64,000 nt of DNA from contig NZ_JAXCIL010000003.1 in assembly GCF_034387475.1 (NCBI RefSeq), forward strand, positions 1 through 64,000, written 5' to 3'. The translations under genes and the position numbers were made by a program. Of the stretch, positions 14,506 through 58,216 are shown piece after piece. The first letter of the stretch is position 1, and each line of letters opens with the position of its first letter. This DNA is from Pseudomonas sp. Teo4 (GTDB lineage Bacteria; Pseudomonadota; Gammaproteobacteria; Pseudomonadales; Pseudomonadaceae). The notes beneath the pieces were generated by a model. The model ran no database searches. It was not told the DNA's origin and saw nothing but the letters and a program-made list of their open reading frames with translations.

Positions 14506-15031
14506 CGTATCTGCTCGGTTGGTTGATGGATAAAGCGCTCCTTACAGGAAAACAACGCTTTAGCGCACGACTATACATCAACGAAAGTCGAACGATAAGA
14601 CAATGATAGTCAGAAGTGACCCACCACTCAACACCAACCCACACCCATATAGGTCTTAGGTGACCTAAAATCCCTTCTGCCCGCCAAATAGGTCACCTGT
14701 GACCATCCCTATAGCCAGTGCGAGATGCCGCAGATACAGGGCTTTCGGGAGCCAATACCCCCTTTAGGTCACATGTGACACTCGGCAGCAGCACCGCCCT
14801 ACTCCGCCGACAAATACCCAGACACGCCGACTCTTTTTAGGTCACAGCTGGCAGATCACTCGCAGCGGGTGATGCGCTCGCCGATGGATCGATGACGAAC
14901 TCAGCAACGTCCGTTTCCGAATAGGTCAACACGGGTATCGAACGAAGATTTCTGGCGACAATAGTCTGCATCTGATACGTTACTTGGAGACGTTTACGGT
15001 TCCGAGTAACGGGGGTAGCCAAATAAAACTT
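14506..15031. promoter_or_regulatory. Operator-rich gap between dotD and the recombinase
   Basis: A 526-bp stretch without a convincing gene. It holds the promoter-like element for dotD (14570-14589) and four TAGGTCAC-type palindromes or half sites (14652-14665, 14691-14704, 14767-14780, 14840-14853). The best copy is GGTCACCTGTGACC, a perfect inverted repeat with a 2-bp spacer. The sites probably bind one plasmid regulator controlling the divergent transfer and recombinase genes. Confidence 0.65.
14570..14589 (-). promoter_or_regulatory. GACTTTCRTT-type promoter element in front of dotD
   Basis: Minus strand GACTTTCGTTGATGTATAGT. The TATAGT hexamer begins exactly 14 bases after the start of the GAC box, as in the other copies in this window, and lies 65 bp upstream of the dotD start. 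Confidence 0.6.
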
Positions 15032-16003
15032 ATGATTCCGAGTAGACTTCCGGAAACGAATGAGCAGTACGTCATCAAGGCTCTCTCTGTCTGCTCCCAA
15101 GCTGCCCAGGCATACGGCATCGACTCCCCCCATTCGGTACCGCCACTCACGGTGATCGAGCACCTCATCACCCGTAAGCCCTCGATCGCCCGTAACACCT
15201 GGAAGCAGTACAAGAACGCCCTTCGGCATCTGTTCACTGAGCGTATGGCGGCGACTGAGGAGAAAGTCGTCCAGGAAGAGCTCCAGGCCGCTCTCCAGAT
15301 GCTGGATACGACCTCATCAGAGGGCACCCTTCGAAAAGGGACTCAGACATCCTCCAAGAAGCAGAAGGGCTTTAAGCGAGCCGACTACCAACGTTTGCTT
15401 TCGTACCTGGAGATGCACCAGGGCAAACACCGCTATGCGCGCCCATTGAAGACCTGGTTGAAAGCGACCTACTTGGTCGGTCTGCGGCCGGGAGAATGGA
15501 AGTCAGCCGGCGTGACTGAGATCCACGGCCGCCCCGTACTTAATGTCGAGAACGCGAAGGCCACGAACGGCCGCGGCAATGGAACGTTCCGCTCCCTGGA
15601 TCTGGGGGATCTGACAGCTGACGAGCTGGAGGACATCCACGAGATGATTGCGATGCTGGAAGGCTACGCCGGCGAGCTCCCGTTCGACACCCTGCAGGAG
15701 AGGATGGGCGACTACATGAAGTACGCCACCAGGCATTGCTTTGGGAAGCGAATGAAGTATCCGACGCTGTACTCAATGCGGCATCAGTTCTCGGCGAACG
15801 CAAAGCTGGCCGGCAACAGCAAGGCCGAGGTGGCCGCGCTGATGGGGCATGGAAGTGACGAGACCGCAGGAGAGCATTACGCGAGAAAGGTTTCAGGTGA
15901 TGCCGCCGGAAAGGTGAAGCCGTTAGCCTCTGATGTCCAAAAAGTGCGATTGAAGTCGAAGACGTTCAAACCGAGGTCCAAAGTTGCTTTAGGCGGCGAA
16001 TAA
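15032..16003 (+). CDS. Tyrosine recombinase-like protein (phage integrase family)
   Basis: A 323-residue protein (from the ATG at 15032; a TTG at 14984 would add 16 residues, and neither has a strong ribosome site). A core-binding-like N-terminal domain (SIARNTWKQYKNALRHLF) is followed by a catalytic domain with Arg in YLVGLRPGEW, then LYSMRHQFSANAKLA, GHGSDETAGEHYARK giving the second His and candidate nucleophile Tyr. The first His of the canonical HxxR box is Tyr here (YSMR), so activity is uncertain. It might resolve plasmid dimers or be the relic of an integrated element. A bidirectional terminator separates it from the convergent mvaT-like gene. Confidence 0.75.
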   Translation: MIPSRLPETNEQYVIKALSVCSQAAQAYGIDSPHSVPPLTVIEHLITRKPSIARNTWKQYKNALRHLFTERMAATEEKVVQEELQAALQMLDTTSSEGTLRKGTQTSSKKQKGFKRADYQRLLSYLEMHQGKHRYARPLKTWLKATYLVGLRPGEWKSAGVTEIHGRPVLNVENAKATNGRGNGTFRSLDLGDLTADELEDIHEMIAMLEGYAGELPFDTLQERMGDYMKYATRHCFGKRMKYPTLYSMRHQFSANAKLAGNSKAEVAALMGHGSDETAGEHYARKVSGDAAGKVKPLASDVQKVRLKSKTFKPRSKVALGGE

Positions 16004-16013
16004 TGATCGGCAA

Positions 16014-16042
16014 AAAAAAGGGATCTTTATGCTCCCTTTTTT
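16014..16042. terminator. Bidirectional rho-independent terminator
   Basis: Perfect inverted repeat AAAAAAGGGA / TCCCTTTTTT around a 9-base loop, between the stops of two convergent genes. A-run and T-run on both sides let it work in both directions. Confidence 0.85.
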
Positions 16043-16061
16043 GTTTGTATCGCTATGACAA

Positions 16062-16424
16062 CTACGACTGCAGCCAGGATTCCACTACGTCGGCGCCGAA
16101 TTGAGTTTTCCACTCTTTCAGAATCTTGTGATTACCACCCTTCGTTTCAACAACCTCGTTCGTGTTTGGGTTGAGATAGCGTTTTAACTGCCGCTCACGG
16201 CGCCCAGAATTCGGTTGAGTCTTCGAACTGCGGTTTTGTGCTTGCGGATCAAGTAAATTGATGACATCACGGAGAGATTTATTGTATTCAGACATCAAAG
16301 CACGCAGTTTGGTATCGAATTCGAGCTCTGCTTTCATCTGCCCATTCTGCTGCAAGCTAGCTAAACGAGCCTGGAGATCTTTGATGGCCTGCTCGGTAAT
16401 ACGGTACTCGTTAATCAGAGACAT
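16062..16424 (-). CDS. MvaT/Pmr-type H-NS-like xenogeneic silencer
   Basis: A 120-residue nucleoid protein. The N-terminus MSLINEYRITEQAIKDLQAR forms the coiled-coil oligomerisation region typical of Pseudomonas MvaT, MvaU and Pmr, and ELEFDTKLRALMSEYNKSLRD follows the family closely. The C-terminal DNA-binding part has LNPNTNEVVETKGGNHKILK EWK, with the GGN hook that reads AT-rich minor grooves. Plasmid-borne copies (Pmr on pCAR1) lower the host cost of foreign DNA by silencing. A good sigma-70 promoter lies upstream. This is one of the strongest pointers to a Pseudomonas host. Confidence 0.93.
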   Translation of the reverse strand: MSLINEYRITEQAIKDLQARLASLQQNGQMKAELEFDTKLRALMSEYNKSLRDVINLLDPQAQNRSSKTQPNSGRRERQLKRYLNPNTNEVVETKGGNHKILKEWKTQFGADVVESWLQS

Positions 16425-16452
16425 AGCATGGCTCGCTTATTCTGGAGGTCTG

Positions 16453-16481
16453 ATAGTAAAAGAATTTGTGTTCGAATTCAA
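16453..16481 (-). promoter_or_regulatory. Sigma-70 promoter of the mvaT-like gene
   Basis: Minus strand TTGAAT, 17-bp spacer, TACTAT; the -10 box ends about 29 bp before the start codon. Confidence 0.6.
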
Positions 16482-19097: not shown

Positions 19098-20021
19098 CTA
19101 AGCTTGCTGTCGTTCCTCTTCAGGCGCGTCGGAGTCCTCAGTCGCCAGATCTTTTTCAGCCCTGTCGAGGGTACGCAGCAGCTCATCGAGCAGCAGCCGA
19201 GTCTCGACAGCCAGGGAGGTATAGCCAGGATCCTGGCGAACGGTCTTAGCAGCCTGGTAGAGCGAGTCAGAGTGCTTCTTCACCACTCGCTTGATTGCTG
19301 CGCCAGGCGCGTGCTTCGCAGTCGCTTTGTTCCGGCCCTGGGCCTGTGCTGCAGCAAGCATCTGCTCAAGAACCTCGACGGCCTTGTCGCCATGCGTCTT
19401 CAGCAGCTTGACCGCTTCAGTGGCCGAGATCCGGTCGTCGATAACGGCATCACGAATAGATTTCGGTCCCCCTACGAGCATCAGCAGGCCATCGACATAG
19501 GCAGTACCGAGGCCCATCCGATCGGCGACGACTTCGAGCTCTAGGCCGTAGCGAATCAGGCGTTTGCAAACCAGGCCCGTTTCGTAAGGCGTCAGGGGCA
19601 AACCGGTGTTGCTGCGGTACAGCTTTACGGTCAGGTCCTCCAGGGAGACGCCGCGCTCTTCCGGTACCGCAGGAATCGTTTCGATCTCGGCGCCTTCTTG
19701 AATAGCCAGAAGCACGGCCTTGGTCCGGCAGTGGCCATCGGAGACGTACTTGACCTCCTGATCACCTTCGCGAGCGATGTACACCGCGATGGGTTTGTCC
19801 ATGTAGTAGCCTTCGGACTTCATCGAGTCCGCCAGTGCCCGGATATGCGCTTCCAGACCAGGGCGCGGAGTGCGCGCATTAAAGCCCGACATGAACTTCA
19901 GTTCGCGGGGATCCACCTGCCAGAGATCACGGCTTTTCGATCCCGACATAGCCTTCTTCGTGCTGCCCTGAACCAGGTCGCGTTCGAAGCTATCGAGCGG
20001 CATCTCAACTTGTTTTGCCAT
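19098..20021 (-). CDS. Second ParB/Srx-fold DNA-binding protein (KorB-like regulator)
   Basis: A 307-residue ParB-family protein. The N-terminal domain carries VDPRELKFMSGFNART and YVSDGHCRTKAV (the ParB/Srx signature region), followed by a helix-turn-helix (LEVVADRMGLGTAYVDGLLML, about 160-185) and a charged helical C-terminus. It differs from the parA-linked ParB and has no ParA partner beside it, which suggests a transcriptional regulator like KorB rather than a segregation factor. Start at 20021 overlaps the previous stop (TGATG); a GTG one codon upstream is possible. Confidence 0.78.
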   Translation of the reverse strand: MAKQVEMPLDSFERDLVQGSTKKAMSGSKSRDLWQVDPRELKFMSGFNARTPRPGLEAHIRALADSMKSEGYYMDKPIAVYIAREGDQEVKYVSDGHCRTKAVLLAIQEGAEIETIPAVPEERGVSLEDLTVKLYRSNTGLPLTPYETGLVCKRLIRYGLELEVVADRMGLGTAYVDGLLMLVGGPKSIRDAVIDDRISATEAVKLLKTHGDKAVEVLEQMLAAAQAQGRNKATAKHAPGAAIKRVVKKHSDSLYQAAKTVRQDPGYTSLAVETRLLLDELLRTLDRAEKDLATEDSDAPEEERQQA

Positions 20022-20293
20022 CACTGTCCCCTACCCTGCGTATCCGTTGTCTGGTTTGTTGCTATCGAATCGCGACTATCAGAGCTCAATCTGCTCTTCG
20101 CGTGCGCCAGGATCGTTTCGGGGCAATCACGCCACCGTTTGCTTTCCCGACTCGCCAGGTACGCCTTCCAGGTGCTCACCGCGATCGGCTTGGCCTGTCC
20201 AACATTCACCAGCTCCAACGCTTCCAGCTGAGTCATCCCGGCCTTTTCAATCAGCCTTCGGAGCAACGCCCCGTTGGTTTCCTCGGCAGTCAT
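20021..20293 (-). CDS. Small putative HTH regulator, first gene of the operon
   Basis: A 90-residue protein starting MTAEETNGALLRRLIEKAGM. The pattern LIEKAGMTQLEALELVN, then PIAVSTWKAYLA suggests an Xre-like helix-turn-helix. GGAGAGAA precedes the start at 20293; the frame upstream is less plausible. It is translationally coupled to the ParB-like gene. Its promoter region contains an element of the GACTTTCRTT class and an inverted repeat GGTGCAC-AA-GTGCACC, and faces parA. Confidence 0.65.
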   Translation of the reverse strand: MTAEETNGALLRRLIEKAGMTQLEALELVNVGQAKPIAVSTWKAYLASRESKRWRDCPETILAHAKSRLSSDSRDSIATNQTTDTQGRGQ

Positions 20294-20344: not shown

Positions 20345-20364
20345 AAGATCAACAAACAAAAGTC
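20345..20364 (-). promoter_or_regulatory. GACTTTCRTT-type element for the HTH/ParB operon
   Basis: Minus strand GACTTTTGTTTGTTGATCTT, hexamer at the standard distance, 52 bp before the start codon at 20293. It overlaps a TAGGTCAC-type site. The hexamer GATCTT is poor, so this is one of the weaker copies. Confidence 0.4.
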
Positions 20365-24497: not shown

Positions 24498-24517
24498 TAG
24501 ATACTATGACGAAAGTC
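24498..24517 (-). promoter_or_regulatory. GACTTTCRTT-type promoter element in front of repA
   Basis: Minus strand GACTTTCGTCATAGTATCTA with the hexamer 31 bp upstream of the repA start. Confidence 0.6.
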
Positions 24518-24801
24518 AAAAATGATCAAGAAACGAACAAAACAGACAGACAGACAACCTCTCGCGAGCTGCGGTGCTTGAGGTCCACTCCACTCCGGTC
24601 CGGTCCGGTTGCAGGTACCCGCTCGGTCGAATTTTGCGGTAGTTAAACCGCTGTTTAAATTCTAGTCAATATATTTTCACACACATACAAAAACTTTCTG
24701 GATTGGATCCCATGTCTGTTTGTCTGTTTCTTTTTTAAACAAACAAACAGATATTTAGAGGCTGCTAAGTGTTTGATTTTAAAGGGTTTTATTGGGGTTA
24801 A

Positions 24802-25475
24802 GGTGAACGTTTATGGGGTGAGGGTGAATATATATGGGGTGAGAAGTGAAAACTTATGGGGCGAAGGTGAAAGTTTATGGGGAGCAATGGTGAAAGGCTA
24901 TGGGGTGAGAGGTGAATGGATGTGGGGCGAAAGGTGAATGGATGTGGGGAGCGTGAAGTGAACGTTTATGGGGCCTCCTGAGCAAAGGTGAAAGCATATG
25001 GGGCCATTTGAAGGCTACTGGTCGAGCACCAGGATCGGGGGAAAGGTGAACGTTTATGGGGAGGTTAGGAGGTGTAGCCCCTTAAAAGGTGAACGTTTAT
25101 GGGGTTGAGCGTGAGTTGTGGATCTGACAACGGGTCGGCATCCGACCAGGCCACTGAAATGAGTCACCGTTCGATGCCCCGATGAGGCGCGGAAGGTGGC
25201 AAAGGTGAAAAAATATGGGGAGGCCATCAAGCGCGGCATAAACCCCAGTAAATACAGGCGTCTGCGGGGTACTTTTTATTTAAAGGGTGAACATTTATGG
25301 GCAGGCAGCCGATCTCCCGTTGGCCATAAACAAGCAGCCACATGTGACCTAAATCCCGCCAAAGGTGAACGTTTATGGGGTTGGCTTGGGGAGGAGAGCA
25401 TGAAAGGTGAACGCATATGGGGCGGCAAATCGTGTCTGGGGGGATCGTGGGTGGCAAAGGTGAATGGATATGGGG
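24802..25475 (+). repeat. Array of 16 RepA iterons
   Basis: 17-bp direct repeats, consensus GGTGAANGNNTATGGGG, starting at 24802, 24823, 24845, 24866, 24889, 24911, 24933, 24957, 24987, 25045, 25088, 25204, 25286, 25364, 25406 and 25459. The first eight are spaced 21-24 bp (two helical turns); the rest are irregular. Copies at 24845 and 24957 begin AGTGAA, and the one at 25286 ends in C. They are not CRISPR repeats because spacers are short and unequal. Confidence 0.92.
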
Positions 25476-25490
25476 CCGATGGCTTATTTT

Positions 25491-25510
25491 GACTTTTGTT
25501 GTGCTATCCG
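25491..25510 (+). promoter_or_regulatory. GACTTTCRTT-type promoter element after oriV
   Basis: GACTTTTGTTGTGCTATCCG, 61 bp before the start of the 51-residue gene at 25571. Confidence 0.5.
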
Positions 25511-25570
25511 CGATGCTTTTAGGCGACATAAACCAATTTTGCGGCTTTCGCCGTATGGGAGAGGTTCGCT

Positions 25571-25726
25571 ATGCAAGGTCCGCTGCCGTTGTTCGATGTG
25601 CCGAAAGACAACACGGGGGTCAGCCGCGGTATGTTCGCTGTGGCTTCCAGTACCAGTAACCGGCCGAAGCTTGATCTGGCTGATCTGCCGTCTCCGCCGC
25701 AGAACGGCACTCTGCGCCCCCGCTAA
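25571..25726 (+). CDS. Small unknown protein, 51 residues
   Basis: An ORF beginning MQGPLPLFDVPKDNTG and ending NGTLRPR. GGAGAGG sits at ideal distance from the ATG, a promoter-like element lies upstream and the next gene starts 20 bp after its stop. It is proline-rich and hydrophilic, without a signal or membrane segment. Function unknown. Confidence 0.6.
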   Translation: MQGPLPLFDVPKDNTGVSRGMFAVASSTSNRPKLDLADLPSPPQNGTLRPR

Positions 25727-25746
25727 CCAGGTAGGGGAGCGAATAC

Positions 25747-26265
25747 ATGTCTTCTACCTATGCAGAGAACGAGGTGTTCAGTTTCTGTGGGCACCTTGAA
25801 GGAGAGCTCGGTGGCGAGCTGAAGAGTGGATACGCCGTTGCACAGTCGGCCGAGGAGGCAATTCGGTCGATGCGGGAATGTGGTTTCTACATCTCGGCGA
25901 TCACTTCATTGGCTGAGGTGAAACAGACCGTTTCCATCCTGGAGCTCATCGCTCATCGCCATCCTGATATCGAGCCGACTGATTACGTAGACGTCTATCC
26001 GGCAGAGATCCAGCCCTATCCTGAAAGCAACGTGTTCTGCTTCACGGGGCATGTGGTCGATGCGTTTGGGGCATTGAAGGCTGGTTTCATTGTGGCCAGC
26101 GATGTCGACTTCGTTGTGACCTACCTGAAAGGACTGGGTTTTGTTGTCGAGTCGGCAACGTCCTTGGAGCAGCTCCGCCAGGCAATGGCGGACATGATGG
26201 CGATAGCCGACGACGATGCCTCGTTCGACCACAGCTGCGTGGTCAATTTCAAATCGGCCGCCTGA
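25747..26265 (+). CDS. Unknown protein with an internal tandem duplication, 172 residues
   Basis: Two copies of a module of about 60 residues. Copy 1 (about 8-68) has NEVFSFCGHLEGELGGELKSGY and GFYISAITSLAEVKQ; copy 2 (about 93-155) has SNVFCFTGHVVDAFGALKAGF and GFVVESATSLEQLRQ. Each would be an alpha/beta fold of about one strand-helix-strand-helix. No known family recognised. A strong ribosome site (AGGTAGGGGAGC) precedes it. It sits between oriV and the transfer operon. Confidence 0.75.
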   Translation: MSSTYAENEVFSFCGHLEGELGGELKSGYAVAQSAEEAIRSMRECGFYISAITSLAEVKQTVSILELIAHRHPDIEPTDYVDVYPAEIQPYPESNVFCFTGHVVDAFGALKAGFIVASDVDFVVTYLKGLGFVVESATSLEQLRQAMADMMAIADDDASFDHSCVVNFKSAA

Positions 26266-26327
26266 GGGCGGCCCCATCCTCAGTAGCATCTCAACCCGAC
26301 AACAGGAAAAAGTGCGGTGTCCATTCG

Positions 26328-26356
26328 TTGACACTAAAGGTATTTTTGCGTATTTT
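26328..26356 (+). promoter_or_regulatory. Sigma-70 promoter of the dotI-dotO operon
   Basis: TTGACA, 17-bp spacer, TATTTT. A reverse-oriented GACTTTCRTT element (26362-26381) lies directly downstream, over the expected transcription start, where it could act as an operator. Confidence 0.7.
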
Positions 26357-26398
26357 CCGCATCTATCAACTAATGAAAGTCGTTGGGGTTCGTTCGGT

Positions 26399-27052
26399 AT
26401 GTCAGGTACTTCACCACGCGATGACGAGCACTGCCTGGATCTGAGCCGTCTGCAGTTCTACAAGAAATACTTCGGCAAACTGCTGAACGCCCTGATCTTC
26501 TCTATTGTGCTGAACTTCGTCACCGGCGGTGCTTTCGTCTGGGTCAAAACCCGTGACGTCGAGCGTGAGTACTTCGGCCAGGACTCGGTGACTGGAAGGC
26601 TCACGCAGATGGTTCCGCTGAGCGAACCCTTTGTATCGCCCCAGAAACTGTTGGACTGGACAGTCGAATGTGTTGCTGGTGCGAACAGCTACGACTTCGT
26701 GCACTCGCAGAAGCAGCTGCAGCGCAACTCGCAGTGCTTCACTCCGGACGGCTGGTCGATGTTCATGGAAGCGCTGGACCGCTCCGGCAATCTGGACCTA
26801 GTCAAGAAACAGCGACTGGTGACCTCGGCGGTGCCCCTTGCTGCACCGGTGGTAACCAACCAAGGGATGCGCCGCGGTGTGTGGACCTGGCAGATCGAAG
26901 TTCCTTTCATCGTCAGTTTCCAGGGGGGGCAAGGTGGGCGAACCGTCGCCACTCAGAAAACGCTGGTGACGCTGCTTGTCACCCGGGTGAACCCGTTTGA
27001 AAGCCGCGATGGGCTGGGGATCGCGCAATACCTCGGGGGCGACCTTCGATGA
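26399..27052 (+). CDS. dotI: DotI/IcmL (TraM), inner-membrane secretion protein
   Basis: A 217-residue protein: a short cytoplasmic N-terminus, one membrane helix (about 33-52, LLNALIFSIVLNFVTGGAFVW) and a periplasmic NTF2-like domain with two cysteines (in TVECVAG and SQCFTPDG). This is the IcmL/TraM layout, and VPFIVSFQGG fits the family. The ATG at 26399 lacks a strong ribosome site but begins the conserved part. First gene of the second transfer operon; overlaps dotH by 4 bp. Confidence 0.88.
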   Translation: MSGTSPRDDEHCLDLSRLQFYKKYFGKLLNALIFSIVLNFVTGGAFVWVKTRDVEREYFGQDSVTGRLTQMVPLSEPFVSPQKLLDWTVECVAGANSYDFVHSQKQLQRNSQCFTPDGWSMFMEALDRSGNLDLVKKQRLVTSAVPLAAPVVTNQGMRRGVWTWQIEVPFIVSFQGGQGGRTVATQKTLVTLLVTRVNPFESRDGLGIAQYLGGDLR

Positions 27053-27969: not shown

Positions 27970-27971
27970 TT

Positions 27972-30136: not shown

Positions 30137-30146
30137 GGCCGCTGAG

Positions 30147-30680: not shown

Positions 30681-30697
30681 AGAAAGGAGACCATCCT

Positions 30698-31090: not shown

Positions 31091-31104
31091 GGTGAGTTGG
31101 TAAA

Positions 31105-36335: not shown

Positions 36336-36766
36336 TCAAGCGGATCAACTGCTCGGTCGTTTTCCTTCTGATGGTGGCGACCGCTTTCCCCGCGTGCGCG
36401 GGGATCTTCAACATCGGAACTTCGGGAGGCGCTTCGAACGAGAGCAGTTCGAGCAATGTGGTTGTTCGCCCTGATGCTGGCCCGGGGAGAGCATCGACAC
36501 CGATTGTCCCTGTGGAAAGTGCATCGCCGCAACGGGTACCGGTGGAAAGCCCCCCCGTCTATCAGCCCTATACGCCGCCGGCTGCGTCGGTGTTGCCTGC
36601 CCCGATATCGGACGATGCAGAAGTTCGGCGCTACGACCGCTACCCAAACGAAAGCGATGTCGACTACATCGCTCGTATGAAGCAGGTCTACAAAACGTCT
36701 GCAGCAGAACTAGAGCGTGTCGGTGCTGAACACATGTTGCGCATGCAGCAGTTGGCGCCTCATTGA
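36332..36766 (+). CDS. Exported proline-rich unknown protein, 144 residues
   Basis: Signal peptide ending FPACA (about residue 23), then a Ser- and Pro-rich segment (about 30-95) and a short helical C-terminus (YIARMKQVYKTSAAELERVG). Not recognised; it takes the place after traU where IncI1 carries traV, but no homology could be judged. Last gene of the operon; its end overlaps the convergent HNH gene by 7 bp. Confidence 0.65.
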   Translation: MIKRINCSVVFLLMVATAFPACAGIFNIGTSGGASNESSSSNVVVRPDAGPGRASTPIVPVESASPQRVPVESPPVYQPYTPPAASVLPAPISDDAEVRRYDRYPNESDVDYIARMKQVYKTSAAELERVGAEHMLRMQQLAPH

Positions 36767-37257
36767 GCTCTTGTCGATGAGGGGCGGTTGAGGCCAGCTT
36801 CGCGATTATCTGGAGCGAGCCTCACCTGGTAGTGATCAGATAGTTGAGAGAGGTCGAGCGACCAGCTGTACGCGGAGCGGATCTCGTGGATCGCGAAGGC
36901 TCGCTTGACCAGCTGTAGGGCTTGGCCGGGGCTGATGGAGTTCACATGGCACAGCCACTCGATGGCTTTGTGGGTTTCGCTGCGCTCGATGGCGAGACCG
37001 ATATGCTTTACCTGGTGGCACCTCGGGCAGAGCGCTATCAATCGATCCAGGCGCTGGATGAGCCGGTGGTCATCGTAGTGCCAGATTTCATGGCACTCGA
37101 CAGGATGGTGCGGGCCTCGGTTAGAGCAGATCTCGCAACGGTAGTTGGCAGCCTTGAAGCAGATGCTTTTCAGCCGACTCCAAGTGGCTTCGCTGACGTT
37201 TGAACGGACGTTGCTGTACCAGCAGGATCTAGGAACAAGCTCGATGGTTAGATTCAT
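36760..37257 (-). CDS. HNH-type endonuclease-like protein
   Basis: A 165-residue protein with a complete HNH/zinc pattern: CEIC (about 40-43), VECHEIWHYDDH (about 54-65), then LIALCPRCHQVKHIG (about 73-87). The C-terminal half is helical. It could be a nuclease or a DNA-binding relative; no partner methylase lies beside it. A GACTTTCRTT element (37334-37353) lies 77 bp upstream in the right orientation, so it may be co-regulated with repA, dotD and the helicases. Confidence 0.75.
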   Translation of the reverse strand: MNLTIELVPRSCWYSNVRSNVSEATWSRLKSICFKAANYRCEICSNRGPHHPVECHEIWHYDDHRLIQRLDRLIALCPRCHQVKHIGLAIERSETHKAIEWLCHVNSISPGQALQLVKRAFAIHEIRSAYSWSLDLSQLSDHYQVRLAPDNREAGLNRPSSTRAQ

Positions 37258-37284: not shown

Positions 37285-37313
37285 TTGCGTCTGATTGGTT
37301 ATTTTTTTACTAT
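37285..37313 (+). promoter_or_regulatory. Sigma-70 promoter of the HTH gene at 37345
   Basis: TTGCGT, 17-bp spacer, TACTAT in an AT-rich gap. It diverges from the HNH gene. Confidence 0.5.
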
Positions 37314-37333
37314 CAACGACATATTGACATGGT

Positions 37334-37353
37334 AATATAGATCAATGAAAGTC
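37334..37353 (-). promoter_or_regulatory. GACTTTCRTT-type element upstream of the HNH gene
   Basis: Minus strand GACTTTCATTGATCTATATT. It overlaps the start codon of the divergent HTH gene, so transcription from it would cross that gene's leader. Confidence 0.55.
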
Positions 37354-37950
37354 ACCGATAAGGAACGAGAAGTCAGCGCCGAAATGGCGGCATGGCTGGG
37401 TTTTCTGAGGAAGGCCAAGCGGGTGACTCTGCAGAGCATCGCAGAAACTCACGCTACCCATCGGGGGAATCTGTCGGCGTTCATTTCGAGCAAGGGGACG
37501 ACGCGGAATGTTTCGATGGAGAAGCTGCGGATGGTCCTGTTTGACCTCGGGCTTCTGGATGGCGGGATGTTAGCTCCAGGCCTCCACCGTTGGGAGGTCG
37601 ATGAAGAAATGGTCGATTCCCTGTGTGAGCTGCTGAATAAAAGCGAGTTCGAGCGAGGGTATGTGTTCCGCTTGGGGAATGGCCTACGGGCATTCGCAGT
37701 GGTTCAGGTGTGCGAGGCCAACGCGGTGTTCGCGAGTTTGCCTGTTGAGATTGCTGAGCGGGTGGCTTCTGGATTGAAACCAACTGAAGGCGGGCAGCGC
37801 ATCAGCTTGGTGGATCTCGACCGGGCTGGCGATGCGCAGATTCAGGCGCTGTGGCAAACCCCTGCAGACGCTTCGGTGTTTGCGAGCATACAAAGTCTCT
37901 GGACGGATGAGCCGTTATTCCGATTGCCCATTGAGAAGAGGGCGGGCTGA
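37345..37950 (+). CDS. HTH regulator A, 201 residues
   Basis: An N-terminal helix-turn-helix (about 22-65: VTLQSIAETHATHRGNLSAF then a conserved SSKGTTRNVS loop) is followed by LGLLDGGMLAPGLHRWEV and a C-terminal alpha/beta domain without a recognised family. The layout recurs in the gene at 38154. No ribosome site is visible before the ATG, which is itself part of a promoter-like element; translation may be leaderless-like or weak. Confidence 0.72.
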   Translation: MKVTDKEREVSAEMAAWLGFLRKAKRVTLQSIAETHATHRGNLSAFISSKGTTRNVSMEKLRMVLFDLGLLDGGMLAPGLHRWEVDEEMVDSLCELLNKSEFERGYVFRLGNGLRAFAVVQVCEANAVFASLPVEIAERVASGLKPTEGGQRISLVDLDRAGDAQIQALWQTPADASVFASIQSLWTDEPLFRLPIEKRAG

Positions 37951-38153: not shown

Positions 38154-38930
38154 ATGGCTACCCAGAAGCGAATGAAAGCTAACGAGCTGGTCACTCTGCT
38201 CGCTGAGCTGGTGGTGATGGACATCGAGATGATGGCCAGGTTTGCCAATATCCCTGTCCAGAACCTGCGTTCCTGGTTGGCCGGCAAGAAGGAAAACCTT
38301 CGGCTGCAGTCGGTGATGAATTTGATGTCGGTCATGGGGTTGAAGGTCGACAACGGACTTCGCCTGGATGACGCGCGGGTTCACTATTGGTACATCGAAG
38401 ACAGCATTTTCAGCCAGAAGAAGAGCGTCTACGCGGCGCTGACGAAGCTTTCCAAGTTGCTGGCAGGCTGCTCGATCACGGCGGTCGAATCTACGTCGCC
38501 ACGGCTCAAAGAGCGCCTTGGGCATCGCTTCTACCTGGTGGCGAGCGCCAAGGTGCGACTTGTTGTGTGCGTGCGTCGCAGTTTCTTCCGGGCGCCGGCG
38601 GTATCTCCCGAGGTGATCAAAGGGGCCTGTTGGCGGGATGACAGTGATGATCATCTGATCACGACAAACCGTCGTTTGTGGACGCACCTGGTTGAGCGCG
38701 ACCTGACCACGTATGAGTTCGATCGCATGTTCAATCAGGTTAGCGAAAACGTGAGCTGGGCTGATGTTTCGCTCATGGCTCGCGAATTCGGCGTTACGGC
38801 TGCTGATGTGTCGCAGTGGATCCTGGAGCGACATGGCGAGCTGGTCCCCGATGGAGCAGGGGCACAGGATGACGAAGGCATCGATTTGGATAGCAGCGGC
38901 GGGCGCGTGCTGTACCTCGCAGCAGGTTGA
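38154..38930 (+). CDS. HTH regulator B, 258 residues
   Basis: An N-terminal helix-turn-helix (about 10-65: MMARFANIPVQNLRSWLAGK) followed by VMGLKVDNGLRLDDARVHYW, the same order as in regulator A, then a C-terminal domain with two segments that again look helical-DNA-binding (REFGVTAADVSQWILERHGE). AAGGA precedes the start. Probably a transcription factor; target unknown. Confidence 0.7.
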   Translation: MATQKRMKANELVTLLAELVVMDIEMMARFANIPVQNLRSWLAGKKENLRLQSVMNLMSVMGLKVDNGLRLDDARVHYWYIEDSIFSQKKSVYAALTKLSKLLAGCSITAVESTSPRLKERLGHRFYLVASAKVRLVVCVRRSFFRAPAVSPEVIKGACWRDDSDDHLITTNRRLWTHLVERDLTTYEFDRMFNQVSENVSWADVSLMAREFGVTAADVSQWILERHGELVPDGAGAQDDEGIDLDSSGGRVLYLAAG

Positions 38931-41060: not shown

Positions 41061-41141
41061 GCGCGAGCTGGTCCCTGCGCTCGCTTTGGCCGGGTGATGG
41101 GGGAGGGGGCGCAGGTGTTAAAAGGTTAGGCTTTACACGAC

Positions 41142-41161
41142 GACTTTCGTTTGTTTATCCT
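41142..41161 (+). promoter_or_regulatory. GACTTTCRTT-type promoter element for the UvrD-like helicase
   Basis: GACTTTCGTTTGTTTATCCT, hexamer 31 bp before the start codon. A palindrome CCTGAT-GCAAT-ATCAGG (41159-41175) overlaps the expected start site. Confidence 0.55.
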
Positions 41162-44108: not shown

Positions 44109-47100
44109 GTGATCGCCATGCAACCAGCCACCCCCACTCAAACCAAGAACCTCGTCAACTGGATCCAGCTCAACACAGATGATCCGGAAACGCGCTTGGT
44201 GGCAGTCAAGTTCCCTTCGGGTACCAAGCGCCTCGTGTTGGTAGCGAACCAGGATCTCACCAACGGCCAGCTCCAGGTGTTGGGCGAGCTGGGCTTCTAT
44301 CGCAGTCGGTCGGGGTTCCTGGTTCGCGATGACCTGCGCTTCAGCCTGCAGCAGATCCAGAAAGCTTTTCCCAAAGCCCATCCGGTGAAGGTGCCGATGA
44401 ACTGGGTGACTCGCATCATGCCGGAGCGCCCGGTTTCACCAGCTAGTGCGACTGTGTCCACTCCCAAGGTCTCTGCCCCGGCAATCAGCATCCCCCCGCA
44501 GGTTCCGGCGCAAGGCCGCGAACAGTCCGTAGGGAACGAAAGCGAAGACCGGCCCGACGAGGTTCTTCCGGTAACGGTCACCGTCAACAACGCGGTGATG
44601 TCAGCCCGGCCGCTTGGCATGAATTACCGTGGCCAGATGGTCTTCCTGGGTGAGGATGGACGCTTCATTCAGGGGCCAGCCCAACAGATCATTCGGGAGG
44701 CCGACAGCCGCGGTGCCACATTCCTGTATGGGGCAACTGCGGAGGACCTGGCTTTATGCGCCGATGGCTTGGTGAGGGAGATTGCCGGCGGCAAGGTCCT
44801 GCGGTTCGACGATCTGAAGCGCTTCAGCAGTATCGTGACGGAGATCCCTGAGGGGGCTGTTCTCTCTTCTCCTCGGGCAAGAGAGGTACAGGAGGCAATC
44901 GAGGCCGCGCTGGTTCGGCACATTCGCAAACAACCTGGGATGACGCCTAAAGCTGCCTACAGTCTGGCCATCAAGCTGCACGAAGGGCAACCGCCGCTGG
45001 CTGCACGTACCTCCGAATCCGTTGCTCTGCAGCAGTATTCGACGCCGCTTCCATTGAGTGTTGCTGTCCAGCAAATCGTTGGCGGCTTCAAGGGGCGTTC
45101 TGTTCTGGAGCCGACGATTGGCAACGGCTCGCTGGTATGCACCGTCAAGGACGCCGCCTTGGCCGGCGTCGAGCTCGACGCTCGGCGCCTTGATGCGATC
45201 CGGAGAGACCGGTCGGAGGCGAACCTCCAGCATGGCGATGCCACATCCTTCGACTTCCGCTCGCTTAATGGTGGCGGGGACTTCGATGTCGTTTTAAGCA
45301 ACCCGCCATTTGGGGGCCTGCAGCCACCCCGCATGATGTCCGGGCTCAAGGTCAGCAGGGTAGACCACCTGATCATGATCCGGTCGCTGCAGGCGCGGGC
45401 GGACGACGGCGTAGGGGTCTATATCATCGGCGCGGACAGCTACCTTGACAGCCAGGCCGGGCTCGTCACAGGCGGTTCTCGGTATCTCTTCAACTGGTTG
45501 GCGGATCGCTACCAGGTCGACGCCGTCGAGGTGGATGGTGGGATTTACACCAAGCAGGGGGCTTCTTTCCCGATTCGTATCGTCGTGGTCGGGAGGAAGG
45601 AAGCCGGGCATGCCCAAGTGCCCGATCGGCTGCCGGTGCTGCTGGACCACGACGAGGTGTTCGAATGGGCTGCCGGCATGTACGAGAAGTATGGCCTGGC
45701 GGAGATTCGAACTCCTGAAATGGGCCTTCAGGAAGCGCTCAGCGATTCGGCCGTCGTCGAGCTCGATGGCGATGCCCCGGTGGAGGATCGCTCAGCTGAG
45801 CAATCCCATCCCCCAGTTGAGACGGAGTCCGGTGCGGCAAGGGCGGTCGCGCCGGTGGATCGCAGCGAGGAAGAAGAAAACTCGTACCAGTCGCCATATG
45901 CGGCTTTCAGCCGAGCCGGCGAGGCCACAGCGATGGTCCCCCGAAACCTGGCGACGCCTACCCGTATGGCTCTGACAGAGGTTGTGCGAGAAGAGGGCGA
46001 TGTCGACGGTTTCGTGGCGGCTGAACTGGGGTGGTCCGTGGAGGAGTTGGGCGGCTATCTCTCCCCTGAGCAGGTTGACGCCGTGGCCCTGGCCATCAAC
46101 TCCTTGCAGAAGGGGAGGGGCTTCCTGGAGGCGGACCAGACAGGGTTGGGTAAAGGGCGGGTGATGGCTGCCTTGGCCAGGTACTCGGTCCTGCAGCAGA
46201 AGACGGTTGTCTTCCTAACCGAAACGCCGACGTTGTTCACGGACTTCTGGCGGGACATCAGCGACATCGGATCGGCCGAGCTTTTCACGCCGATGATCGT
46301 CAACGATGGAGTGTCGATCTTCGATCCGATCTCTGGCAACAAACTGGTTCCAGCCACACCCAAGGCGGTGATCCAGGCCGCGCTCGATGGCGGGGTGGTG
46401 GATCCCGCCTACAACCTGGTGCTCGGTACTTATTCCCAGTTCAACCGGGACAGAGCCAAATCTTCGAAGGCGCGCTGGATCAGCCAGATCGCGGAGGGCA
46501 AAGCGTTATTGCTGGATGAAGCGCACAACGCGGCCGGCGAGTCGAATACCGGGCAGAACATCGGTCTCGCCATCGACAACGCCGACTTCGTCGTTTACTC
46601 CTCGGCGACGGCCATGAAGGCTGGCAAGAACGTGATGCTGTATTCCGAGCTCTTCCCCGAAACAGTGGATATGGGAGCGTTACCGGAGACGCTCGCCATT
46701 GGCGGCGAGGTTCTGCAGGAGGTGCTCTCGGGAATGCTGGCTCGGGACGGCGTGTTTATTCGGCGCGAGCATGACCTCAGCAATCTGGCATTTAGCACCG
46801 TCAGCGACGACGGGCGAGAGGAACGAAATCGATCGCTTTCGGACAAGCTCGCCGAGATCCTGGAGCTGATGAACTACTTGGCCGGCGACATCAATGAGTT
46901 GGTCAACAAGCGGAACAAGGAGATCAAAAAAGCACTTGAAGCCATTCCGGAGGTGGAGCGCAAAGGCAACCGGATGGGAGCGGTCAGCACCAACTTTGGG
47001 TCGCGCCTCTACGCGATTTACCGCCAGTTCATGATGGCCATCAAGACAGACCTCGCTGCTGACAGGGCTATCAAGGCCCTGGAAGAGGGCAAAAAGCCTG

Positions 47101-49346
47101 TCATCGTGTTGGAGAACACCATGGAGTCCCTCCTGGTGGACATTGTGGCCGACCTACGGCCTGGCTTCGATGACGTTGATGCCGAAGAGTTCGGAACCAG
47201 CCTGCAGGGCGAGACCGAACTGGATGGCTATCTCACCTTCCGGGATGTGCTGCACCGCATGCTGCATCGCCTGACCTACTACGTGGAGACCAACCGCTAT
47301 GGTGAGGCCACCAAGGTCCCCGTGACCTCCGAAGAGTTCATGGATGTGGTTTCGACAGTGGACGGGTTGATCAATGACTTCCCGGATCTGCCGGTGTCGC
47401 CACTGGATGAGATCCGAACCCGAATCGCGACGGCTGGTTTCATCTGCGATGAGCTTTCCGGCCGCAAGCTGCAGATCCATCAGCGAGCAGGGAGCTTCTT
47501 TGCATCGCCTGTGCTTGAACGGCCCAAGGCGCAGATCGTGAAGGACTTCGTGACGGGCACTACCGATGCCCTTCTGCTGACACGTGCCGGCAGCACGGGT
47601 ATCAGCTTGCATGCCGGCGAAAAGTTCCCTGACCAGCGGCGCCGGGTAATGATCGAGCTTCAGTCCGCCGCGGACGTGAACACTCGGGTGCAGTTCTTCG
47701 GTCGCGTCAACCGGAAGGGCCAAACGTCGTCGCCGGAAATCGAGACGTTGTCGTCGGGCTTGATCGGCGAGGCCCGGCCCATCGCGATGCAGAATTCCAA
47801 GCTCCGGAAGCTATCTGCCAATACAACCGCAAACCAGGACAACGCTGCTCTGGACCGATCGGTACCGGACTTCATCAATGCCATTGGTGACGAGGTCGCC
47901 TTCCGGTATTTGGAGGCCAATCCGCGAATTGCGCAGCGTCTCGACATCAATCTGGAGAATGAGGACGAGCGCGAAGAATCGTACTTCATCAACAAGCTGA
48001 CCAGTCGGCTTGTGATGCTGCGTGTGGTCGAGCAAGAGCAGATCTACGAAGCGCTCACCAATGAATACCTCCGGGTCATCAAGGAGCTCGACGCCAAGGG
48101 CGTGAACCCCTTGAAATCGCGAGAGCTTGATGTGCGAGCGCGGGAGGTGGCGCGGGTGGTGTACGAGAGCGGGAATCCCCATTCCGATAGCGCATTCAAT
48201 CAGCCGGTCTTCGCCAAGACGATCGAGTATGACGTCGCGCTGGATCCGATGAGGTCGGATGCCGTCAAGCGCCTGGTTCGTGAGGGTTCTGCTGCGGTTG
48301 AGCACTTCAGGATCAATCATGAGCGACGTCAGAACCAGGACTTCTTCCTTGCCCTCAAGGGGTTCCTTGCGGTCAACCGACGGAAGTTTCTGGAAACCGT
48401 TTTAGCGAAGGATTGCAAGTCGGTTGACGAGGCGTTGGCGGCTAAGAGGCCGAACTCTGTTCAGAAGATGATGCACCGCCTCAAGGTGCTTGATGGCGTC
48501 CTCGACGGACTGCAGGTCGGGGCCGTAGCCAGGTTTACCAACAACGACGGTGAAACTGATTTCGGCGTTATCGCTTCGATCGCCGTGCCTGACAACCCGA
48601 AACACATCCACCTGCTTGGAGGGTATGAGCTCAGCTTTGCAGTACCGGGCCGGCAAACGCTGATCGACCGGACGCTCTACAGCCTGCAGGACGACGTCCA
48701 GTTCCGGATCATGCCAAAGGCCGGATTGCTGGATGACCTCATGCTGCGGTTCGACACTGCGCCCGCAGGGAACGTGACATACCAGCGGCTGATTCTCGAC
48801 GGCAACCTGTTCAAGGCCGCGCAGATCGCGGCTGCGGGCTCCATCGGCAGCAGCATCATTTACACCGATGAGCGGGGTGCGCGTCACCGCGGGGTGCTGA
48901 TGGCCAGGGGCGTCGACCTCAAGCATTTGCAAAGCCTGCCAGTTCGCGTGGAAACGGCGGCTATGTGTGGTGAGGTACTCGACCGGTTCCCAGCGGTGAA
49001 GCTCACAACTTCGCCAGGCTTGAGCGATGACGACGAAAGCGAGATGCGTCTTTTCCTGCAGGACGGCATGGCCGTCATGGAGGTTCCCGGAAGCAAGGTC
49101 TGGGGCGGTCGTTACTTTGCGAACGAGGACCTGATCAAGGTTACCGGGCCTTTCGCCGGTACGCGGAAGGTGATGGTGGCCAAGTTTCCCACCGAAAACA
49201 TCTCGAAAGCGATGGGGATTTTGTACAGGCAGGGCGTTTCGCTATATGCGGAATCCTCTTTGAGACAAGCTATTAACAATTTAAGAGGTGTCATATACTC
49301 TAATGAAAGTGAAAATGAAGAGCGCATGCGCGCTGTGAAAGCTTAG
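44109..49346 (+). CDS. Giant N6-adenine methyltransferase-helicase fusion (strawberry notch/P1 DarB-like)
   Basis: A 1745-residue protein. The first about 270 residues have no clear family. A methyltransferase domain follows, with SAM motif I VLEPTIGNGSL (about 334-344) and catalytic motif IV SNPPFG (about 397-402). A superfamily 2 helicase of the strawberry notch type comes next: QTGLGKGR (about 677-684), LLLDEAHNAAGE (about 800-811) and, in the C-terminal lobe, STGISLHAG and VQFFGRVNRKGQ (about 1160-1205). The remaining about 500 residues are unassigned. Phage P1 DarB has this fusion and protects incoming DNA from type I restriction; a similar role in conjugation is inferred. Start is GTG 44109 or ATG 44118. 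Confidence 0.88.
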   Translation: MIAMQPATPTQTKNLVNWIQLNTDDPETRLVAVKFPSGTKRLVLVANQDLTNGQLQVLGELGFYRSRSGFLVRDDLRFSLQQIQKAFPKAHPVKVPMNWVTRIMPERPVSPASATVSTPKVSAPAISIPPQVPAQGREQSVGNESEDRPDEVLPVTVTVNNAVMSARPLGMNYRGQMVFLGEDGRFIQGPAQQIIREADSRGATFLYGATAEDLALCADGLVREIAGGKVLRFDDLKRFSSIVTEIPEGAVLSSPRAREVQEAIEAALVRHIRKQPGMTPKAAYSLAIKLHEGQPPLAARTSESVALQQYSTPLPLSVAVQQIVGGFKGRSVLEPTIGNGSLVCTVKDAALAGVELDARRLDAIRRDRSEANLQHGDATSFDFRSLNGGGDFDVVLSNPPFGGLQPPRMMSGLKVSRVDHLIMIRSLQARADDGVGVYIIGADSYLDSQAGLVTGGSRYLFNWLADRYQVDAVEVDGGIYTKQGASFPIRIVVVGRKEAGHAQVPDRLPVLLDHDEVFEWAAGMYEKYGLAEIRTPEMGLQEALSDSAVVELDGDAPVEDRSAEQSHPPVETESGAARAVAPVDRSEEEENSYQSPYAAFSRAGEATAMVPRNLATPTRMALTEVVREEGDVDGFVAAELGWSVEELGGYLSPEQVDAVALAINSLQKGRGFLEADQTGLGKGRVMAALARYSVLQQKTVVFLTETPTLFTDFWRDISDIGSAELFTPMIVNDGVSIFDPISGNKLVPATPKAVIQAALDGGVVDPAYNLVLGTYSQFNRDRAKSSKARWISQIAEGKALLLDEAHNAAGESNTGQNIGLAIDNADFVVYSSATAMKAGKNVMLYSELFPETVDMGALPETLAIGGEVLQEVLSGMLARDGVFIRREHDLSNLAFSTVSDDGREERNRSLSDKLAEILELMNYLAGDINELVNKRNKEIKKALEAIPEVERKGNRMGAVSTNFGSRLYAIYRQFMMAIKTDLAADRAIKALEEGKKPVIVLENTMESLLVDIVADLRPGFDDVDAEEFGTSLQGETELDGYLTFRDVLHRMLHRLTYYVETNRYGEATKVPVTSEEFMDVVSTVDGLINDFPDLPVSPLDEIRTRIATAGFICDELSGRKLQIHQRAGSFFASPVLERPKAQIVKDFVTGTTDALLLTRAGSTGISLHAGEKFPDQRRRVMIELQSAADVNTRVQFFGRVNRKGQTSSPEIETLSSGLIGEARPIAMQNSKLRKLSANTTANQDNAALDRSVPDFINAIGDEVAFRYLEANPRIAQRLDINLENEDEREESYFINKLTSRLVMLRVVEQEQIYEALTNEYLRVIKELDAKGVNPLKSRELDVRAREVARVVYESGNPHSDSAFNQPVFAKTIEYDVALDPMRSDAVKRLVREGSAAVEHFRINHERRQNQDFFLALKGFLAVNRRKFLETVLAKDCKSVDEALAAKRPNSVQKMMHRLKVLDGVLDGLQVGAVARFTNNDGETDFGVIASIAVPDNPKHIHLLGGYELSFAVPGRQTLIDRTLYSLQDDVQFRIMPKAGLLDDLMLRFDTAPAGNVTYQRLILDGNLFKAAQIAAAGSIGSSIIYTDERGARHRGVLMARGVDLKHLQSLPVRVETAAMCGEVLDRFPAVKLTTSPGLSDDDESEMRLFLQDGMAVMEVPGSKVWGGRYFANEDLIKVTGPFAGTRKVMVAKFPTENISKAMGILYRQGVSLYAESSLRQAINNLRGVIYSNESENEERMRAVKA

Positions 49347-56393: not shown

Positions 56394-56405
56394 GTGGGAG
56401 GGGCG

Positions 56406-56732: not shown

Positions 56733-56762
56733 CGGCTAAATGATGATGTTGAAGTGGGGGGA

Positions 56763-56904: not shown

Positions 56905-56920
56905 TTACTAGGGACGCTAG

Positions 56921-57385
56921 ATGTCGAATACAAGCATTTTGAGCGATGCCGATTGGCCGCATAAGCGGGACGTCGTCTTGCTGGTCAAACCCAGTGCGCG
57001 CAAGCGGGTAGGTCTCACCCTCTTGGCCATCGCCATTTTATTTTGCGGGGGCATGGCGGTCCTCGGCGAACGTGGCCCTGTCTCGTCGTGGCTGCAGTCC
57101 ATGGATCGAGAGGCTGATCGCGCTAAGTTGGAGCCGGTGATGCGAAAATTCGCTGAGCAGGGCAAGCCGGAAGCGATCATCTGGCTTGCGCAGAACTTCC
57201 CGAAAGAGAACAGGACCTCTCTCGAAGCTTTGGCGAGCCAAGGGAACGGAACGGCGCTCTTCACCCTCGCGGCGCTGCGCCTCCGTGACGGCGACGAAGG
57301 CGAATTCGAGTCATTGATGCAGCAGGCAGCAGAGGCAGGTAATGCTGACGCTCTTCGTTTCATCAAGCGCCAGGCTGAGCGCTGA
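56921..57385 (+). CDS. Membrane-anchored Sel1-like repeat protein, 154 residues
   Basis: A basic cytoplasmic N-terminus, one membrane helix (about 29-48, VGLTLLAIAILFCGGMAVLG) and a periplasmic helical part with Sel1/TPR-like repeats (ALASQGNGTALFTLAALRLR and QQAAEAGNADALRFIKRQ). Its promoter region is the remote iteron/ParB-box cluster, and the last iteron ends 17 bp before its start, so RepA may repress it. A long hairpin follows. Confidence 0.68.
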   Translation: MSNTSILSDADWPHKRDVVLLVKPSARKRVGLTLLAIAILFCGGMAVLGERGPVSSWLQSMDREADRAKLEPVMRKFAEQGKPEAIIWLAQNFPKENRTSLEALASQGNGTALFTLAALRLRDGDEGEFESLMQQAAEAGNADALRFIKRQAER

Positions 57386-57390
57386 GGCAT

Positions 57391-57434
57391 CTATCCGTGG
57401 CGTGATTTTGAAACCTAGATCACGCCACGGATAG
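57391..57434. terminator. Long hairpin (16-bp perfect stem)
   Basis: CTATCCGTGGCGTGAT and its exact complement around a 12-base loop, right after the Sel1-like gene. There is no T-run, so it may be a terminator needing Rho or a stabilising end. Confidence 0.5.
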
Positions 57435-57459
57435 TCCACCGTAAGTTGCGAGCGAAGGG

Positions 57460-57822
57460 GTGTTGGTGGTGGCAGAGACATATACCTGTGGTGGCTGTGG
57501 AGCGGAATTTTCCCCCGGCGATCATGTGTGCCGGGGGTGTCACGGTCGAATCGTTTATGGCGCCCTTCCGGAAGAGGTTTCGAAAGGAGCGGGTGCTGCA
57601 GGGGCGGTCTGGGCGTCTATTGCCTTTGCAGTCCTGTTTCTGTTGCCGGTGGTAGTGTCTAGCTGTTTCGGTGTGGCTGTCCCGATTGGCCTCGGGCTTG
57701 GGTTGTGGGGATTGCTGGTTGTCTTTGCTGTCTGGGTATGGGGGTATCGGTGGGGCCGGAAGAGGGCTGTCGCTGCGCGAATTGGCATGTGCAGGACTGT
57801 TGTTGATAGGAGCCGGTCGTGA
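57460..57822 (+). CDS. Zinc-ribbon membrane protein, 120 residues
   Basis: Starts with GTG. A zinc ribbon CGGC...CRGC (about 10-27) precedes two membrane helices (about 50-68 and 74-94) and a basic tail. Function unknown; a small sensor or scaffold is possible. Its stop overlaps the next start. Confidence 0.6.
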   Translation: MLVVAETYTCGGCGAEFSPGDHVCRGCHGRIVYGALPEEVSKGAGAAGAVWASIAFAVLFLLPVVVSSCFGVAVPIGLGLGLWGLLVVFAVWVWGYRWGRKRAVAARIGMCRTVVDRSRS

Positions 57823-58169
57823 TCAAGTTGGCTGCGGATAGTTCACCGGTGGCGAAATTCATTCGCCATAGGCGCTTGGTCGCCGATATGCGCCTACCTG
57901 GTGTGGTCGCGGCTGAGTTCCAGGGTTGGGTTGGCTCCTGCTCAGTTCGTTATCGTCTCAGGGGTGCTGAGCACGCGGATGTGATTTCCTCAGTAGATGA
58001 AGCCTTGCTGGTGGCTGGCATGCTGAGTGCCCCACTGGCCGGCGCTGACTCGGTGCGCGTCGAGCCTGCTACATCCGGGCAGGCTGACTTCCGCACGGCA
58101 TTGGAGTGGGGAAGGGCTCGGCTTGGCGAGGTCGACCTGGCGAAATTGCTGGCTTGGTGGTCTCTCTGA
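57819..58169 (+). CDS. Unknown protein, 116 residues
   Basis: Starts with GTG overlapping the previous stop. Soluble and basic at the N-terminus, with a beta-rich middle (GWVGSCSVRYRLRGAEHADV) and a helical end. Function unknown. Confidence 0.58.
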   Translation: MIKLAADSSPVAKFIRHRRLVADMRLPGVVAAEFQGWVGSCSVRYRLRGAEHADVISSVDEALLVAGMLSAPLAGADSVRVEPATSGQADFRTALEWGRARLGEVDLAKLLAWWSL

Positions 58170-58196
58170 GAGCAGATGGGTTGCTCTCGATCTTTT

Positions 58197-58216
58197 GACT
58201 TTCATTAGGCTATAGT
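58197..58216 (+). promoter_or_regulatory. GACTTTCRTT-type promoter element for the SNF2 helicase
   Basis: GACTTTCATTAGGCTATAGT, one of the best copies; hexamer ends 31 bp before the start codon. Confidence 0.65.

What the first reader, a model, noticed from the sequence alone, without database searches (positions are those of the whole stretch)
14570..58216. A plasmid-wide promoter class: GACTTTCRTT-N4-TATNNT at constant spacing
Nine copies share a GACTTTCRTT box whose first base lies exactly 14 bases before a -10-like hexamer. Seven are correctly oriented 31-77 bp before genes: dotD, the HTH/ParB operon, repA, the 25571 ORF, the HNH gene, the UvrD-like and the SNF2 helicase. The distance is too short for a sigma-70 -35/-10 pair. 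It recalls phage T4 middle promoters, where MotA binds a box replacing the -35. Two copies (26362-26381, 49292-49311) point at no gene; the first overlaps the dotI promoter start site. A plasmid-coded activator could co-express replication, transfer and helicase genes.
Basis: seen in the sequence. Interest (0 to 1): 0.78.

Follow-up and report, generated by a model that had tools for sequence, protein, structure and literature searches.

The report
Plasmid-wide switch sites, regulator unproven
A family of conjugative Pseudomonas plasmids carries about twenty copies of one short DNA sign beside many of its transfer, replication and DNA-handling genes; the sign looks like the landing site of a plasmid-made DNA-binding protein that probably holds those genes down, rather than a special kind of promoter.

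Summary
The pattern is real and larger than reported. The window is part of a 150,058-bp plasmid (C3) of the pND6-2/pPAD8 family. A weight matrix finds 20 sites in C3. A degenerate form has 14 matches in the 6.5-Mb genome, all on C3. All 20 sites recur in a relative at 83% identity, and a related motif marks a Stenotrophomonas plasmid with the same backbone.

The promoter/activator reading is only partly supported. Box and TAT hardly change between relatives, but the rest of the supposed -10 changes at about the background rate. The best sigma-70 promoters lie at varying distances and on either strand. At dotI a TTGACA-N17-TATTTT promoter runs into a box that points the other way, which suits a repressor.

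Best explanation: operators of a plasmid-wide, self-controlled regulator, probably a repressor. The leading candidate is the HTH protein 37345-37950, whose start codon lies in a box in Pseudomonas, Stenotrophomonas and Xanthomonas plasmids. Binding and repression are inferred. It works like the KorA/ArdK/StbA networks of R388 and seems distinct from MtvTA, already known to repress dot/icm in this family.

The parts
10333..10352 (+). box, antisense inside the gene after parM
   Evidence: conserved in CP032256 at 91587
10378..10397 (+). box, 45 bp from the one before; a similar box lies antisense in the gene after parM of the Stenotrophomonas plasmid
14570..14589 (-). box before dotD
14592..14611 (-). 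second box before dotD, 22 bp upstream
20345..20364 (-). box before the 90-aa HTH / ParB-like operon
24498..24517 (-). box before repA, between a -35-like TTGATC (24524-24529) and a -10-like TAGTAT (24501-24506)
25491..25510 (+). box after the iteron-like repeats
26328..26356 (+). predicted dotI promoter TTGACA-N17-TATTTT
   Evidence: prediction
26362..26381 (-). box just after the dotI -10, pointing the other way
36760..37257 (-).
37308..37327 (+). weaker inverted partner of box 37334
37334..37353 (-). box over the start codon of the candidate regulator gene
37345..37950 (+). 201-aa protein with a predicted Cro/C1-type HTH: leading candidate for the box-binding regulator
   Evidence: binding not tested
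38154..38930 (+). 258-aa protein with a weak HTH_26 match: second candidate or partner
41142..41161 (+). box before the UvrD-like helicase gene; predicted promoter TTTACA-N18-TATCCT (41132-41161)
49292..49311 (-). box in the last part of ORF 44109-49346, before gene 49356
58197..58216 (+). box before the SNF2/DEAD-box helicase gene

Best explanation
The boxes are operators rather than promoter elements. A plasmid-coded DNA-binding protein reads an asymmetric two-part site, KACTTTCRTT-N4-KATM (gccACWTTCRTTNGNATATM in the Stenotrophomonas relative). It sits over or beside sigma-70 promoters of many backbone operons and mainly represses them, its own gene included. The leading candidate is the 201-aa HTH protein 37345-37950, perhaps with its 258-aa neighbour. 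Shown by computation: the sites, their plasmid specificity and conservation, the variable geometry to predicted promoters, and the box at the candidate's own start. Inferred: the binder's identity, repression, and a burst of expression when the plasmid enters a cell that lacks the regulator.
For: Plasmid-only sites. All 20 kept in CP032256. Box -1..9 differs in 3 of 220 cells and TAT in 0 of 60, against 22.6% upstream. Best predicted promoters at varying offsets and on both strands; dotI promoter followed by a reversed box in C3 and, with a weaker box, in Stenotrophomonas. Candidate's start codon inside a box in C3, Stenotrophomonas and two Xanthomonas plasmids. Candidate present in G186, the only other one of 398 genomes with several boxes, and absent from the nine with a single chance match.
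Against: No binding, expression or start-site data. T at the last -10 position is commoner than chance. Upstream mismatch rates are ungapped, so indels inflate them. Foldseek gave no match at E <= 0.001 for the candidate and Pfam no family. The 258-aa neighbour keeps the same company, so the candidate is not singled out by co-occurrence.
Confidence: 0.55

Rival explanations
1. One reading: box plus TATNNT is a -35-poor promoter that needs a plasmid activator bound in the spacer, as MotA serves T4 middle promoters.
For: Several strong sites have TATAAT or TATAGT at the right place; a -10 there is among the four best promoters at 9 of 19 sites; many sites lie about 50 bp before a start codon and point at it.
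Against: Hexamer positions 4-6 change like background; the ATAT of the Stenotrophomonas motif is not followed by a -10-like end; reversed boxes at dotI and elsewhere; no sigma region 2 domain on C3.
Confidence: 0.2
2. The boxes are operators, but the binder is another plasmid protein (258-aa neighbour alone, MtvA, the 90-aa HTH or an unnamed one).
For: The 258-aa protein occurs beside the 201-aa protein and is better conserved; MtvA binds dotA, dotD and icmL promoters (PMC11826091, section).
Against: The box covers the 201-aa gene's own start. The published MtvA palindrome is at two places in C3, neither at a box. The 90-aa HTH, the ParB-like protein and any ORF near mtvTA have no hit in the Stenotrophomonas plasmid at E 1e-4.
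Confidence: 0.18
3. The sites serve partition or plasmid compaction, with gene control a by-product, as StbA of R388 joins both roles.
For: Sites are spread round the plasmid, two of them inside the gene after parM.
Against: 17 of 21 sites in CP032256 lie between annotated genes, one more overlaps a start codon (that gene table is incomplete); no dense array was found.
Confidence: 0.04

Closest known systems
KorA, ArdK and StbA repressors of plasmid R388 (PMC3937220 and PMC3098194; passages only)
   Same: Plasmid-coded regulators with sites at many backbone promoters, self-controlled, covering transfer and maintenance genes; StbA repeats recur at several promoters.
   Different: Different site (StbA: 9-bp direct repeats TTGCATCAT); here one asymmetric two-part site, and the candidate matched no Pfam family. 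Repression is shown in R388, inferred here.
MtvT/MtvA of pPAD8 (PMC11826091; abstract, two sections and passages)
   Same: Same plasmid family; represses dotA, dotD, icmL and icmP, three of which have boxes in C3.
   Different: AbrB/MazE-type protein with palindrome TAACATTGTTA; that palindrome is not at the boxes; the authors saw no shared sequence in its targets.
Restriction-modification C proteins and other Cro/C1-type regulators (C.BclI, C.AhdI, C.Esp1396I)
T4 MotA-dependent middle promoters (recalled)
   Same: A box in place of a -35 element, near a -10-like sequence.
   Different: Box is nearer the -10, lies in both orientations, and the -10 end is not conserved.

Membership tests
Plasmid-wide regulator regulon (KorA/ArdK/StbA kind) | One site at many backbone promoters of the plasmid | tested here: met
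   20 sites in C3, none of the 14 degenerate-pattern matches off the plasmid
Plasmid-wide regulator regulon (KorA/ArdK/StbA kind) | Regulator coded by the plasmid with a site at its own gene | tested here: inconclusive
   Box over the start codon of the HTH gene in four plasmids examined, but binding not tested
Plasmid-wide regulator regulon (KorA/ArdK/StbA kind) | Measured repression of the promoters | not testable with these tools
   No expression data
KorA or StbA protein family | Sequence match to a known family | tested here: not met
   0 Pfam families at E up to 0.1 for the 201-aa protein and 0 at E up to 1 for its homolog P0004
Cro/C1-type HTH proteins | HTH fold | tested here: inconclusive
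T4 MotA-type activated promoters | Conserved -10 at fixed distance from the box | tested here: not met
   TAT kept, hexamer positions 4-6 at background rate; best promoter at that place in 2 of 19 sites
T4 MotA-type activated promoters | MotA protein in the genome | tested here: inconclusive
   PF09114 found nothing here, but nothing rang in the control genomes either
Promoters of a plasmid-coded sigma factor | Sigma region 2 coded on the plasmid | tested here: not met
   PF04542: 25 matches, on C1, C2 and C5, none on C3
MtvA operators | TAACATTGTTA at the sites | tested here: not met
   Two places in C3 at up to 1 mismatch, neither at a box

The most novel reading that the evidence does not exclude
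An undescribed pair of plasmid-coded HTH proteins reads an asymmetric two-part operator placed at many backbone operons of the pND6-2/pPAD8 family and, with a drifted sequence, of Xanthomonadaceae plasmids. It quiets the backbone in settled hosts and lets it flare on entry into a new cell, and accessory modules such as the type IV CRISPR-Cas helicase gene have joined the regulon by gaining a box.
Probability: 0.28. Interest if true: 0.72.

Novelty: new member of a known kind. Interest (0 to 1): 0.56.

Why it matters
Plasmids of this family are conjugative, and one (pS04 90) carries a carbapenemase gene (PMC6133989, passages). One regulator reading about 20 sites would explain how transfer, replication and DNA-handling operons are kept in step, add a layer beside MtvTA, and give a testable operator code that spans Pseudomonas and Xanthomonadaceae plasmids. 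It would also show how an accessory CRISPR-Cas module comes under plasmid control.

Tried and rejected
Direct-repeat model: site 72413 reads as two GACTATC 11 bp apart, but the two halves of the matrix agree only in part; no claim. Long inverted repeat: in 18 Stenotrophomonas sites a second arm at +42 is the second-best of 190 offsets (mean -13.7, background -24.8, sd 3.3; the best, +7, is self-overlap); in C3 it stands out only at the candidate's own gene, at +43.

Kinship of the 201-aa and 258-aa proteins: similar order of elements in the two models (the second has pLDDT only 71.4), but hhalign gives probability 1.3; not claimed. Solved structures by sequence: 10 matches at E 0.22-0.88, read as chance. 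Wider search: the 258-aa profile matched only G000 among 369 class genomes and no viral contig; the 201-aa protein matched only G000 among 398 genus genomes. A long consensus gave 42 single-match stretches in genome contigs and 88 in viral contigs, not followed; two of the 42 come from one Stutzerimonas stutzeri strain. Plasmid pZDHY95-VIM-2 has another transfer system and was not used. Regions around 90-aa HTH relatives on four other plasmids were scanned: two had no match at score 8, the others weak ones up to 12.3. C3 matches at 8768, 30259, 104746, 117268, 117749 and 129854 scored 10.7-14.5 and were left out of the 20; 117268, 117749 and 129854 have equal-ranking counterparts in CP032256, so the last two may be real.

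Papers: one search returned none. Searches were seen as listings. For a published account of this box or regulator I searched and saw none in the listings or passages; subscription journals are mostly not held, and the 2013 paper on pND6-2 was not read.
Full report
WHAT THE WINDOW IS. The window is G000:C3:1-64000, part of a 150,058-bp contig in a 6,512,772-base genome. Its 25000-37000 stretch matches 28 plasmid records, 25 of them Pseudomonas: 100% identity to pLWPZF, 97.9% to NC_018746.1 (P. putida ND6, 117,003 bp, which fits the 117-kb pND6-2 of PMC6133989, passages) and 82.9% to NZ_CP032256.1. pPAD8 is NZ_CP061074.2 (PMC11826091, section 25), also in that list. The family has a Dot/Icm transfer system and type IV pili; pND6-2, pS04 90 and pPAD8 are conjugative.

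THE OBSERVATION. All nine copies are there, five with the exact box. Iterating a weight matrix over C3 gave some 20 sites; the strongest read TTTKACTTTCRTTG-N3-TATAAT. The best 14 (score 23.9 or more) were not reached in 40 Markov-1 sequences; the other six fall in the range where about 0.3 chance matches per plasmid are expected. A matrix rebuilt from the 20 finds, at score 17 or more, 20 in C3, 20 in pLWPZF and 21 in CP032256; these are related plasmids and the C3 sites trained the matrix, so the counts are not independent. ACTWTCRTT-N4-KATM has 14 matches in the genome, all on C3, reversed control 1. Among 398 Pseudomonadaceae genomes only G000 and G186 have more than one match to GACTTTCRTT-N4-TATM (6 each); nine others have one, while the reversed control gave some 16 scattered matches. 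G186 encodes the 201-aa protein at 100% identity; the nine do not.

CONSERVATION. Each of the 20 C3 sites has a counterpart at the same place in CP032256. That plasmid has one more, 28 bp before a helicase gene that stands beside csf1 and csf2 of a type IV CRISPR-Cas locus (dinG is my name for it, recalled). Over the 20 pairs, compared without gaps: columns -60 to -5 differ in 22.6% of cells (indels inflate this; one search shows the gapped alignments), box columns -1 to 9 in 3 of 220, TAT columns 14-16 in 0 of 60, columns 17-19 in 11 of 60 (18%, near the 17% overall difference; p = 0.53 against upstream), columns 20-46 in 33 of 540. With 16 pairs outside coding sequence the picture is similar: 2, 0, 10 of 48, and 1.1 per column. 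So box and TAT are one conserved unit, while the second half of the supposed -10 is not. The conserved stretch at 20-46 is unexplained; leaders and start regions account for part of it. Against my reading, T at the last -10 position is commoner than chance (11 of 20, p = 0.0009).

A DISTANT RELATIVE. Stenotrophomonas plasmid pACYCa.6E (NZ_CP104291.1) keeps the backbone with proteins about 23-58% identical. The C3 matrix gives 11 places at score 9 or more there, reversed control 2; at 15 or more, 5 against 0. Iteration leads to gccACWTTCRTTNGNATATM. Fifteen sites exceed the top score of 20 random sequences (21.0), but the 14 best trained the matrix; the 22 sites tallied include weaker ones. Sites recur near the UvrD, dotI, dotD and 207-aa genes, the HNH/HTH gene pair, and, antisense in both plasmids, in the gene after parM (the last two genes share position only, no BLAST hit).

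PROMOTER GEOMETRY. Sigma-70 promoters were scored jointly in C3 and CP032256 (matrices from recall) at 19 of the 20 pairs, 14592 being left to its neighbour 14570. The yardstick, best score in random 180-bp stretches of one strand of one plasmid (mean 4.7, 90th percentile 7.8), is not an exact null. Best per site, for the highest: dotI TTGACA-N17-TATTTT on the opposite strand (15.1); 116474 TTGATT-N17-TATGAT (13.6); 14570 TTGAGT-N17-TATCAT (12.8); 49292 TTAACA-N15-TATACT, opposite (12.2); 72413 TTGACA-N17-TCAAAT, opposite (12.1); 41142 TTTACA-N18-TATCCT (12.0); 120864 TTGTTT-N17-TAGAAT (11.9); repA TTGATC-N17-TAGTAT (11.2); 142976 TTGACG-N17-GATACT, opposite (10.8); 20345 TTGATC-N16-TAGTAT (10.4). 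The -10 offsets from the box thus range widely and fall on both strands. At dotI both plasmids show a promoter followed within a few bases by a reversed box; the Stenotrophomonas arm is a weak site (14.6). A box there would hinder RNA polymerase. From this I infer operators, mostly of a repressor.

KNOWN REGULATION. In pPAD8, MtvA with MtvT binds and represses dotA, dotD, icmL and icmP; loss of mtvTA raised transfer; the authors saw no shared sequence among its targets, and its own operator holds TAACATTGTTA (PMC11826091; abstract, sections 25 and 28 and passages). That motif is at two places in C3, neither at a box. In R388, six plasmid regulators were found, all repressors in feedback loops, with overshoot on entry into new cells (PMC3937220, passages); StbA binds 9-bp repeats that recur at other promoters (PMC3098194, passages). 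The present set resembles these in layout, with a different site.

VERDICT. Real, strong and wider than reported; most likely the operator set of a self-controlled plasmid regulator, probably a repressor (0.55). It works like the R388 networks; membership of a named protein family is not claimed.

Noticed in passing
NZ_CP032256.1 67459-67478 (L017): A box lies 28 bp before a helicase gene (67431, minus strand) next to csf1/csf2 of a type IV CRISPR-Cas locus, as if this accessory module had joined the regulon.
   Followed up: partly
window 60981-60991; C3 66525-66535: The published MtvA motif TAACATTGTTA is exact both upstream of mtvTA and, inside a longer palindrome, at window 60981; both recur in CP032256. 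The second place may be a further MtvA target.
   Followed up: partly
window 25201-25475: Four iteron-like repeats AAAGGTGAAnnnnnATGGGG lead up to box 25491, probably part of the replication origin.
   Followed up: no
window 26340-26356; C3 near 72290; near window 10366: A stretch TTTTTGCGTATT recurs on one or other strand beside three boxes (26362, 72262, 10378).
   Followed up: no
C3 about 72487-72525: A long inverted repeat, mostly kept in CP032256, follows the third box of a triplet.
   Followed up: no
window 20021-20293: The 90-aa HTH protein has relatives on Burkholderiales and Rhodocyclales plasmids, four of whose surroundings showed no strong box.
   Followed up: partly
CP065422.1 (plasmid record): A record labelled Priestia aryabhattai matches this Pseudomonas plasmid at 100% over 12 kb; contamination or mislabelling seems likely.
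   Followed up: no
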